From positions 1 to 41,157 of the forward strand of contig JAHDHJ010000006.1 of the NCBI GenBank assembly GCA_020631375.1: DNA of 41,157 nucleotides. The letters are read 5' to 3'. Shown piece after piece: positions 37,777 to 40,816 of the stretch. Source of the stretch: Saprospiraceae bacterium (GTDB taxonomy: Bacteria > Bacteroidota > Bacteroidia > Chitinophagales > Saprospiraceae). The notes below the pieces were generated by a model. That model saw only the letters and a list, made by a program, of their open reading frames with translations. It was not told the DNA's origin and did not search any database. Each line of letters opens with the position of its first letter. Positions within the stretch are counted from its first letter, which is position 1. Made by a program: the position numbers and the translations under genes.

Positions 37777-38478
37777 TTACAATTTTCCTTCATCAGCAAA
37801 ACTAAAATAGCCATTCTCCGAAATGATAATATGATCCAAAACTTGGATTTCCATGGTTTGTCCAGCTTTTTTTAATTTTCTTGTTATGTCAATGTCCGCT
37901 TGGCTTGGATTTAAATTACCTGAAGGGTGATTATGGAAAAGAATAATCCCACTGGCCAATGATTCTATGGCTTTTCTAAAAATGATCTTTGCATCGACCA
38001 CTGTTCCTGCCACACCTCCGGCGCTCACTTTCTCCTTGGAGATAACTCTATTGGCCCGATTGAGCAATAGTATCCAAAATTCTTCATATGGAAGATCCAT
38101 CAGTAAAGGAGCGAGTAATTGGTAAGCATCCTGGCTACTTGTGATTTGTGTTTTCTCCTTAATGGGGGAGAGCTGTCTTCTTTTTCCTAATTCTAGCGCA
38201 GCAGCGATAGAAATCGCCTTAGCTTCTCCAATCCCCTTGAATTTCATCAGATCATTCAGTGAACTTTTCCCCAATTCATTGAGGTTATGATTCACCCTTG
38301 CTAAAATTTTCTGTGCCAAACCGACAGCAGATTCTTCCCTCGACCCCGAGCCAATAAGAATCGCTATCAGTTCTGCATCAGTTAGGCTATGCTTGCCCTT
38401 GGAAATGAGTTTTTCTCTTGGACGGTCTGCTTCAGCCCAAGATTTTATACCCAAATTGTTGTTGTAAGTTGTTGACAT
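37777..38478 (-). CDS. radC: RadC family JAB-domain protein
   Basis: 233-aa ORF; IKSWAEADRPREKLISKGKHSLTDAELIAILIGSGSREESAVGLA; ILFHNHPSGNLNPSQADIDITRKLKKAG. Confidence 0.95.
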   Translation of the reverse strand: MSTTYNNNLGIKSWAEADRPREKLISKGKHSLTDAELIAILIGSGSREESAVGLAQKILARVNHNLNELGKSSLNDLMKFKGIGEAKAISIAAALELGKRRQLSPIKEKTQITSSQDAYQLLAPLLMDLPYEEFWILLLNRANRVISKEKVSAGGVAGTVVDAKIIFRKAIESLASGIILFHNHPSGNLNPSQADIDITRKLKKAGQTMEIQVLDHIIISENGYFSFADEGKL

Positions 38479-38626
38479 TTCACATGCATTTGATACATAG
38501 ACGCAACAGAATGTGGAATTCCATAAAAATCAAATTATTTTTTTCAATAATGTTAAACTATTGTTGAACACTGCTCGAGTAATCAAATTCTGCTATATTA
38601 CAACCGAACTAAATCTTATTCATATC

Positions 38627-38908
38627 ATGATACCATTAATTATTTCGCTTGTCAGTGGTGCTTTAGGTGGCAATCTTGCTGGTACTTTAATGAAAAATCT
38701 TTCTTTGGGAACATTAGGTAATTCTATTGCCGGAATTCTCGGAGGAGGGCTTGGCGGTTCTCTTTTAGGCATGCTGGGCATGTCGGTTGGAGATGCCAGT
38801 GCAGGCTTGGATATTACCAATATTCTAGGCAGTGTGGCTAGTGGTGGTGTTGGTGGTGGTGCTGTAATGGCCATCATCGGACTCATCAAAAGCATGATGG
38901 GTAAATAA
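38627..38908 (+). CDS. Small glycine-rich hydrophobic (glycine-zipper-like) protein
   Basis: In-frame ATG at 38627 inside the longer ORF; MIPLIISLVSGALGGNLAGTLMKNLSLGTLGNSIAGILGGGLGGSLLGMLG...SVASGGVGGGAVMAIIGLIKSMMGK. Confidence 0.75.
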   Translation: MIPLIISLVSGALGGNLAGTLMKNLSLGTLGNSIAGILGGGLGGSLLGMLGMSVGDASAGLDITNILGSVASGGVGGGAVMAIIGLIKSMMGK

Positions 38909-39014
38909 TTGAATTTTATCAATTGTGAAACTATTAAGCCAACTTTACTGAGATGATGTCAGGCAGAATTTTCTCCCTGAATTATCTAACCACAGATTTT
39001 CTGTTCACGCTTAA

Positions 39015-39046
39015 CGAAAAAGGCTGCCTTAGGGCAGCCTTTTTCG
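39015..39046. terminator. Strong bidirectional intrinsic terminator
   Basis: cgaaaaaggctgcc-ttag-ggcagcctttttcg. Confidence 0.85.
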
Positions 39047-39077
39047 TATGTTAATAGGTGAATTGCAAATAAACGAG

Positions 39078-39107
39078 AAAGGAAGCGGAATAAATTCCGC
39101 CTCCTTC
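39078..39107. repeat. Stem-loop (near-perfect)
   Basis: ggaagcggaa-taaa-ttccgcctcc with one G-T position. Confidence 0.55.
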
Positions 39108-39220
39108 TTACTTACTATACATTTGGTAAACATGGGTATACAGGGTCTTGGAGGATTAGGTGCTCTTTGATATTTTCTTAATGTAAAGTACCGACAATTG
39201 TACCTTAGAATTTTGGAATA

Positions 39221-39366
39221 AGTGTGAATGGCAGGATAAATGGTGTGAATGGTAATATTTTTGGTTTAAACGGGGGAAACAGGCCTTTTTAGCATTGGTT
39301 CGCACATATATTGGTGTGAATGGTAGAAAAAACAGTGTGAATGGTATTTTTTTTGGTTTGAACGGG
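39221..39366. repeat. Two 54-bp imperfect direct repeats (39221-39274, 39313-39366), each with three 21-bp-phased motifs
   Basis: TGAATGG/TGAATGG/TAAACGG at 39225/39246/39267 and TGAATGG/TGAATGG/TGAACGG at 39317/39338/39359; by eye 45/54 identical between copies. Confidence 0.85.
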
Positions 39367-39418: not shown

Positions 39419-40816
39419 TTAATGCACATCCCTAATTTTTGATAAGAGCCATGATTTATTTACAATATCCTCCTGTTCCTCTACTGCTTTTTTGAGGGTT
39501 GATAATTTCTCATTTTCATGCGGAAGTATTTTTAAGAGTTTGTTCGTAAACCGGATTAAATTCTGATATTGCTTTTTCATTTTGGGTGTTATTAATTTGT
39601 TCCTCATTAAATACAATCTGAAACTGGATAATAAGGACTCTAGTGCATCATGTTCATTCGTTTCATAATACGCCCTCATTAATAAAAGCCTTCCATCCAA
39701 TTCATAAGCGACATCCGAAAATTGAATCTGATTTAATATTTCGATGGTAGAATCATATTCTTTTTTATAAAAAAAGAAATTTGCCAAATTATAGGAATAG
39801 GCATTTTCTTTTTCTTTTTCCGTCAAATAATTTTTATACTCTTCCAGAAATAATTTCACCCAATCAAAATTCTTGGATAACAATCCGGCAGTAATTATAT
39901 TTTTATACATCCAAGGAGTGAATGACTTAATTTCTTTTAGCACACCTATTTCCATCATATCCATATATACATTTACCAAGCGGGAAAGATATTCATTGTT
40001 TCCGGAATTAATTTGACGGATGGAAACGTTCTGTAAATACGTATATAAATAATAGACTTCTTCGAAATTAAAATAAGAATAATATTTTTTTATGAGACTT
40101 TTTACTCCTTGGAATTTTTCTACATTTTGCAAATCCATCAACAACAAATAAATATTATAATAAATATTGATGACCGGTGTTTTCAAGTAGCCGGAGTGGG
40201 GGAGCGACTCCATTAAAACATCCCCTATTCCCAAATTAATTTCAACATTCCGAACTTGCATATAATTGATGGACTCGCAAACATATTTTAATTTTTCGAG
40301 AATATATTTTTGATCGATACTTTCATGTATTTCATTGAAATTATTTTTGCCTAATCTGTTTTTTTCCAAACTTAAAAATGAGAGTTCCAATTCCTGAAAT
40401 TGGAGTTCTTTTTTAATGGTATCCGCTCCTTCGTTTTTCTTTTTCCATTCAATGATTTTTCTCTTGTATAATTGAAAATGTTTGGGCAGTTTTCTATCCA
40501 AAAGTAACTTTGCCAAATCAAAATTTGTATTAATTCCTTCTTGTTCTAATTTTTGATGGAGTAAAAATTTTTCTGCTAATTTGACCAATACCGAAGTCTT
40601 TTGCCTGAATTCTAAATCATTATATTTTCGATTTTTAAAGGCCTTTTTCCAAACTTTTTCCTTTTCTGGTTCCCCATCTTTGTCCAAAAAGTGTAGAAAA
40701 GATGAAAACAGAGCAATTGAATCTGCATTTTCATTAAAAAATGGCGAAATTAGGTACTTTTGAAACCGCACTATCTCCATTTTATTGAAAGTTTCAAATA
40801 ATTCTATGGCTTTCAT
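39419..40816 (-). CDS. Hypothetical protein (helix-rich, repeat-like)
   Basis: 465-aa ORF; MKAIELFETFNKMEIVRFQKYLISPFFN...; no recognised catalytic motif. Confidence 0.7.
   Translation of the reverse strand: MKAIELFETFNKMEIVRFQKYLISPFFNENADSIALFSSFLHFLDKDGEPEKEKVWKKAFKNRKYNDLEFRQKTSVLVKLAEKFLLHQKLEQEGINTNFDLAKLLLDRKLPKHFQLYKRKIIEWKKKNEGADTIKKELQFQELELSFLSLEKNRLGKNNFNEIHESIDQKYILEKLKYVCESINYMQVRNVEINLGIGDVLMESLPHSGYLKTPVINIYYNIYLLLMDLQNVEKFQGVKSLIKKYYSYFNFEEVYYLYTYLQNVSIRQINSGNNEYLSRLVNVYMDMMEIGVLKEIKSFTPWMYKNIITAGLLSKNFDWVKLFLEEYKNYLTEKEKENAYSYNLANFFFYKKEYDSTIEILNQIQFSDVAYELDGRLLLMRAYYETNEHDALESLLSSFRLYLMRNKLITPKMKKQYQNLIRFTNKLLKILPHENEKLSTLKKAVEEQEDIVNKSWLLSKIRDVH

What the first reader, a model, noticed from the sequence alone, without database searches (positions are those of the whole stretch)
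39221..39366. Two triplets of 21-bp-phased direct repeats in a convergent intergenic region
Seen directly: GTGTGAATGG occurs four times, plus GGTTTAAACGGG and GGTTTGAACGGG. Aligned on T(G/A)AA(T/C)GG, the motifs start at 39225, 39246, 39267 and at 39317, 39338, 39359. Spacing is exactly 21 bp within each triplet and 92 bp between triplets. 21 bp is about two helical turns, so all sites in a triplet face the same side of DNA. On the minus strand the motif reads CCATTCACA / CCGTTCAAA, which resembles the direct-repeat boxes of LytTR-type regulators (9-bp boxes about 21 bp apart, established). The array lies downstream of both flanking genes, so it does not look like a promoter for either. No ORF explains it.
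Basis: partly seen in the sequence, partly recalled or inferred. Interest (0 to 1): 0.62.

Follow-up and report, generated by a model that had tools for sequence, protein, structure and literature searches.

The report
Orphan LytTR-type binding-site array
Six copies of a regulator docking site, spaced exactly two DNA turns apart, form a gene switch of a known type (LytTR) that here points at a stretch with no obvious gene, so it probably drives a short RNA or is left over from a lost gene.

Summary
Two 53-nt units (85% identical, 92 bp apart) each carry three boxes at exact 21-bp spacing; dinucleotide shuffles expect 0.05 such pairs in the window and 4 are seen. Read on the minus strand the box is ACCATTCA-N13-ACCATTCA.

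The LytTR reading holds up. In nine genomes of the genus (Saprospiraceae), 25 of 58 TGAATGG pairs have exactly 21-bp spacing (other spacings average 1.1). About 11 of 30 intergenic arrays adjoin a LytTR response-regulator gene (0.8% expected). In two sets of loci a Bacteroidetes -7 promoter element sits a fixed 40-41 bp past the last box. The usual layout is array, -7 element, secreted-protein gene.

So the array is promoter-like, but points along the minus strand, away from both neighbours' starts. There it has a weak -7 (GTACTTTA, 39191-39184), no credible ORF and two hairpin terminators. A few other arrays share this orphan layout. Best explanation: a LytTR-dependent promoter for a short untranslated RNA of about 100-165 nt. 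The main rival is a relic of a lost target gene; sequence alone cannot decide. The kind is known; the box code, fixed geometry and orphan class in Saprospiraceae found no match in the paper library searched.

The parts
39357..39366 (-). Box 1, distal, upstream triplet: CCCGTTCAAA
   Evidence: 21 bp from box 2
39336..39345 (-). Box 2: ACCATTCACA
39315..39324 (-). Box 3: ACCATTCACA
39265..39274 (-). Box 4, distal, downstream triplet: CCCGTTTAAA
39244..39253 (-). Box 5: ACCATTCACA
39223..39232 (-). Box 6, promoter-proximal: GCCATTCACA
39222..39274 (-). 53-nt triplet unit A (downstream, promoter-proximal on the minus strand)
   Evidence: 83% identical to an array at G007:C79:240-292
39314..39366 (-). 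53-nt triplet unit B, tandem duplicate 92 bp upstream
39184..39191 (-). Candidate -7 element GTACTTTA, 40 bp from the last box; weak (3 of 6 to TAnnTTTG) but 6 of 8 identical to TTACTTTG at the same offset in three related promoters
39078..39177 (-). Predicted short transcript, about 100 nt, start inferred about 7 nt after the -7 element; no credible ORF
   Evidence: inference
39078..39107 (-). Hairpin with a partial T tail, terminator-like on the minus strand
   Evidence: (13 pairs)
39014..39047 (.). Strong 15-bp bidirectional terminator hairpin ACGAAAAAGGCTGCC/GGCAGCCTTTTTCGT

Best explanation
The six boxes are binding sites for a LytTR-domain response regulator, arranged as two tandem triplets of direct repeats two helical turns apart. 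As in related arrays of this genus, bound regulator would activate a promoter whose -7 element lies 40 bp past the last box. Here the promoter fires along the minus strand near 39177 and makes a short untranslated RNA ended by the hairpin at 39107-39078 or the terminator at 39047-39014. Box identity and promoter geometry rest on comparative evidence; transcription, the RNA, its function and the cognate regulator are inferred.
For: 21-bp spacing in 25 of 58 pairs against 1.1 for other spacings in nine genomes. About 11 of 30 intergenic arrays lie within 1 kb of a LytTR domain (expected 0.8%), mostly just 3' of the regulator gene and before its target, or between divergent genes; repeated in other genera at L256, L262, L264, L267. 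TAnnTTTG (at least 5/6) at offset 40/41 in 10 of 23 genus loci and at 61/62 in 6 more, background 0.23 loci per offset; 7 of 24 at 40/41 in a further set chosen only by the boxes. ACCATTCA orientation points to secreted-protein genes starting about 84-235 bp on. LytTR binding to triplets of direct repeats 18-21 bp apart is published for CoxC and RcoM (PMC11347149). The stretch past the array folds into two hairpins (z = -7.0). Orphan arrays with a perfect -7 and a nearby hairpin occur at G007:C79 (terminator called) and G005:C762 (hairpin by eye).
Against: The window's own -7 element (GTACTTTA) fails the 5/6 threshold used to establish the geometry. The predicted RNA has no relative in the genus outside its hairpins, no Rfam match at gathering threshold, and no similarity to the stretches past other orphan arrays. 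No expression data. The boxes (ACCATTCACAC) differ at the base after ACCATTCA from those beside the one intact regulator of this group in the genome (C293, ACCATTCATG), so the cognate regulator is not identified.
Confidence: 0.5

Rival explanations
1. Relic promoter: the array once controlled a gene on the minus strand (probably a secreted protein, as at other arrays) that has been deleted; boxes and a decaying -7 element remain.
For: Weak -7 element; most arrays have a gene start within about 84-235 bp while here there is none; a regulator paralog of the group at C87 is itself a pseudogene, so the network is losing parts in this genome. In G093 a homolog of the upstream gene (23% identity, E 8e-28) also sits directly before an array, followed there by an outer-membrane-type gene.
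Against: All six boxes and both spacings are well preserved while the DNA between them has diverged, which suggests continuing selection or recent loss. Other arrays with a perfect -7 element also lack genes (G007:C79, G005:C762).
Confidence: 0.3
2. The array is a regulator sink (decoy) or DNA-architecture site that acts by binding alone, without transcription.
For: Six sites, more than most arrays in the genus; convergent gene-free position; weak -7.
Against: Related arrays have promoter geometry; nothing points to titration.
Confidence: 0.1
3. The boxes are sites of a non-LytTR regulator that happens to use 21-bp direct repeats.
For: No binding experiment exists, and most LytTR genes in these genomes have no array nearby.
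Against: About 11 of 30 arrays adjoin LytTR genes, by chance about 5e-16, in several regulator subfamilies and genera.
Confidence: 0.06
4. A neutral tandem duplication or generic dispersed repeat.
For: The two triplets are duplicates of each other.
Against: Conserved 21-bp spacing at unlinked loci with different spacers, plus regulator linkage and fixed -7 distance; the full triplet is found only once more in the genus.
Confidence: 0.03

Closest known systems
RcoM and CoxC LytTR operators (Paraburkholderia xenovorans, Afipia carboxidovorans; PMC11347149)
   Same: Triplets of short direct repeats two helical turns apart; RcoM binds upstream of the -35 region and activates
   Different: Box sequence TTCNNGCA or TTNNNGCN, CO-responsive one-component regulators, target gene present; CoxC represses
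BtsR (YehT) operator of E. coli, ACC[GA]CT[CT]A-N13-ACC[GA]CT[CT]A (from my own knowledge; PMC5552118 confirms conserved motifs only)
   Same: LytTR response regulator; very similar box ACCATTCA and identical N13 spacing
   Different: Two boxes, sigma-70 promoter, controls a pyruvate transporter
AgrA-activated P2/P3 promoters with RNAIII (PMC4227749; RNAIII from my own knowledge)
   Same: LytTR response regulator with direct repeats upstream of a promoter; one product is a regulatory RNA
   Different: Different box sequence, Firmicutes promoter, RNAIII is long and partly coding; here the RNA is only predicted
Bacteroidetes promoter with -7 element TAnnTTTG (PMC7366714)
   Same: The -7 element found at fixed distance from the arrays
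   Different: The usual -33 element is replaced by LytTR boxes here

Membership tests
LytTR-type operator | Short direct repeats (about 9 bp) about 21 bp start to start | tested here: met
   published rule in PMC11347149
LytTR-type operator | Sites genetically linked to LytTR regulator genes | tested here: met
   About 11 of 30 genus arrays and 4 further loci in other genera; the window array itself has no such neighbour
LytTR-type operator | Bound by a LytTR protein | not testable with these tools
   Needs EMSA or DAP-seq
LytTR-activated Bacteroidetes promoter | -7 element TAnnTTTG at the fixed distance of 40/41 bp from the last box | tested here: inconclusive
   The related arrays meet it as a group; the window has GTACTTTA at offset 40, below threshold, but close to TTACTTTG of three related promoters
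LytTR-activated Bacteroidetes promoter | A downstream gene or RNA as target | tested here: inconclusive
   No credible ORF; two terminator hairpins
Regulatory sRNA | Conserved or known RNA sequence | tested here: not met
   No genus homolog outside hairpins; no Rfam match at gathering threshold
Coding tandem repeat | Open frame through the repeats | tested here: not met
   Stops in all six frames, 92 bp not a multiple of 3

The most novel reading that the evidence does not exclude
Saprospiraceae use LytTR response regulators to switch on a set of short, fast-evolving non-coding RNAs from gene-less promoter arrays (window, G007:C79, G005:C762, G004:C131, G005:C491 and others), beside the secreted-protein genes that the same box type controls.
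Probability: 0.3. Interest if true: 0.65.

Novelty: new member of a known kind. Interest (0 to 1): 0.45.

Why it matters
LytTR regulators are common in Bacteroidetes (11 to 23 domains per genome in this genus), yet full-text searches for LytTR with Bacteroidetes or Saprospiraceae terms found no paper on their binding code. This gives a readable code (ACCATTCA-N13-ACCATTCA with a -7 element 40 bp on) that assigns targets, mainly secreted, type IX-sorted or lipoprotein-like proteins, to regulators and can be tested directly. The gene-less arrays would point to an untranslated layer of control if they are transcribed.

Tried and rejected
Coding repeat: rejected, stops in all frames. Generic dispersed repeat: the full triplet recurs only once in the genus. 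Conservation of the exact locus: not testable, because the convergent pair is not syntenic in relatives; the left gene has one ortholog in the genus (G001:C109) with a different right neighbour and no array. Association with the 465-aa upstream gene family: no array was found beside its paralogs in this genome, only one homolog in another genus. A conserved RNA shared by orphan arrays: none. Rfam: only sub-threshold matches around the hairpins. Small ORF MFTKCIVSKKEAEFIPLPF... at +98: reads through both hairpins and lacks an A-rich leader, judged not real. Several early hits in other genera are 7-bp microsatellites (TGAATGG)n and were set aside.

Full report
What is there. On the minus strand the array reads, from 39366 to 39223, box-N11-box-N11-box, a 40-bp gap, and the same again. 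Each box is a 10-mer close to ACCATTCACA, and within a triplet the start-to-start spacing is exactly 21 bp. The two triplets are 85% identical over 53 nt and 92 bp apart. Shuffles of the window expect 0.05 matches to TRAAYGG-N14-TRAAYGG; four are found, all here. The array starts 52 bp past the end of a minus-strand gene (39419-40816) and is followed by two hairpins, 39107-39078 and 39047-39014, before the convergent plus-strand gene ending at 38908.

The spacing is a property of the genus, not of this locus. In nine genomes of the genus, TGAATGG pairs were counted at every spacing from 7 to 37 bp. 25 of 58 lie at exactly 21 bp; the other spacings average 1.1 each. The 21-bp pairs lie at unlinked places with different spacer sequences. 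Relatives carrying the motif are named Saprospiraceae: L137 (JAHDFV010000086.1) matches G003:C47 and L135 (CALFBH010000010.1) matches G011:C10 in contig length and position.

The sites belong to LytTR regulators. All LytTR domains (PF04397) in the nine genomes were located and compared by hand with the 21-bp pairs. About 11 of 30 intergenic arrays lie within 1 kb of a LytTR domain, where 0.8% of the genome would qualify; the chance probability is about 5e-16, or 3e-11 counting only 8 independent cases. The usual order is regulator gene, array, target gene, all on one strand (G003:C47, G006:C105, G006:C119, G006:C120, G007:C138, G001:C12), or regulator and target divergent around the array (G000:C293, G007:C149, G011:C10). 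One regulator was checked in full: receiver domain plus LytTR. In other genera of the family, found only by the strict box pattern, four more arrays adjoin such regulators (L256, L262, L264, L267).

The arrays are promoters with fixed geometry. In 23 intergenic arrays, a match of at least 5/6 to the Bacteroidetes -7 element TAnnTTTG (PMC7366714) lies exactly 40 or 41 bp past the first C of the last box in 10 loci, and at 61 or 62 bp in 6 more, where a degenerate further box often fills the extra 21 bp. The background is 0.23 loci per offset. In a further set of 24 loci, taken from other genera of the family and two other families of the order and chosen only by their boxes, 7 are at 40/41, and 6 at 50/51, partly with the variant box ACCATTCAGAACAT. 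The ACCATTCA orientation points at the target, typically a secreted, type IX-sorted or lipoprotein-like gene. Published LytTR operators with triplets two helical turns apart exist for RcoM and CoxC (PMC11347149).

What that means for the window. The array has direction: minus strand, toward lower coordinates. At offset 40 it has GTACTTTA (39191-39184). This is below the threshold used above, but it matches TTACTTTG at the same offset in three related promoters at 6 of 8 positions, and the core TACTTT is shared. Beyond it lies no credible ORF, and the stretch folds into two stable hairpins (z = -7.0), of which the first is scored as a minus-strand terminator. I therefore infer a LytTR-dependent promoter for a short untranslated RNA. 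The unproven steps are binding, transcription, and any role of the RNA.

Why it may be a relic instead. The -7 element is weak, the RNA is not conserved, and most arrays have a gene. The regulator group is losing members in this genome: the copy at C87 is a pseudogene. Against this, the boxes and spacings are intact while the DNA between them has drifted, and other gene-less arrays have perfect -7 elements: G007:C79 with a called terminator about 30 bp past the -7 element, and G005:C762 with a hairpin seen by eye but not called by the script. At G004:C131, next to a LytTR gene, the array is followed by two tandem copies of a hairpin-forming 75-nt sequence.

Cognate regulator. The base after ACCATTCA seems to track the regulator: C293-type regulators sit beside ACCATTCATG boxes in three genomes, the G005:C491, G007:C84 and G126:C328 type beside ACCATTCAGAACAT, and the G003:C47 type beside ACCATTCACAC. 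The window boxes are of the last type. No close relative of the G003:C47 regulator was seen among the LytTR genes compared from this 88%-complete genome, so the regulator is unknown.

Limits. Gene calls were mechanical (open frames). The adjacency count was read from two tables by hand, and orthologous loci were only roughly discounted. The -7 background for the validation test was an assumed rate close to the measured one.

Noticed in passing
G000:C87:2429-2653 (L023): A LytTR response-regulator gene 61-65% identical to the C293 and G007:C149 regulators lacks its start and is frame-shifted: a pseudogene, or an assembly error.
   Followed up: partly
G004:C131:2673-2748 and 2822-2893 (L241): Two tandem copies (93% identical) of a roughly 75-nt hairpin-forming non-coding sequence downstream of a LytTR array next to a LytTR gene; a candidate unannotated RNA.
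   Followed up: partly
G007:C79:52-98 and 244-353 (L029, L113): A second, degenerate array lies beyond the terminator of the first, and the first is itself a double triplet; two LytTR promoters in series near a contig end.
   Followed up: partly
L258 (G107:C182): Downstream of an array: a 45-aa peptide MKKSIKGLSTKAIKNINTIKGGNGDDD... with a double-glycine, leader-like motif; possibly a secreted peptide under LytTR control. No NCBIfam match.
   Followed up: partly
G005, G061, G099, G102, G126, G141: A box variant ACCATTCAGAACAT with spacer ATATTTCCT is nearly identical across several genera; its -7-like matches tend to lie 50/51 bp from the last box rather than 40.
   Followed up: partly
window 39419-40816: A 465-aa protein with no Pfam family, 12 matches in this genome and 22 in G006: a lineage-expanded unknown family.
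   Followed up: partly
window 37777-38908 and G000:C86 (L066): radC is divergently paired with a 93-aa glycine-rich gene of unknown family, and the same pair occurs a second time in the genome (83% identity of the small protein).
   Followed up: no
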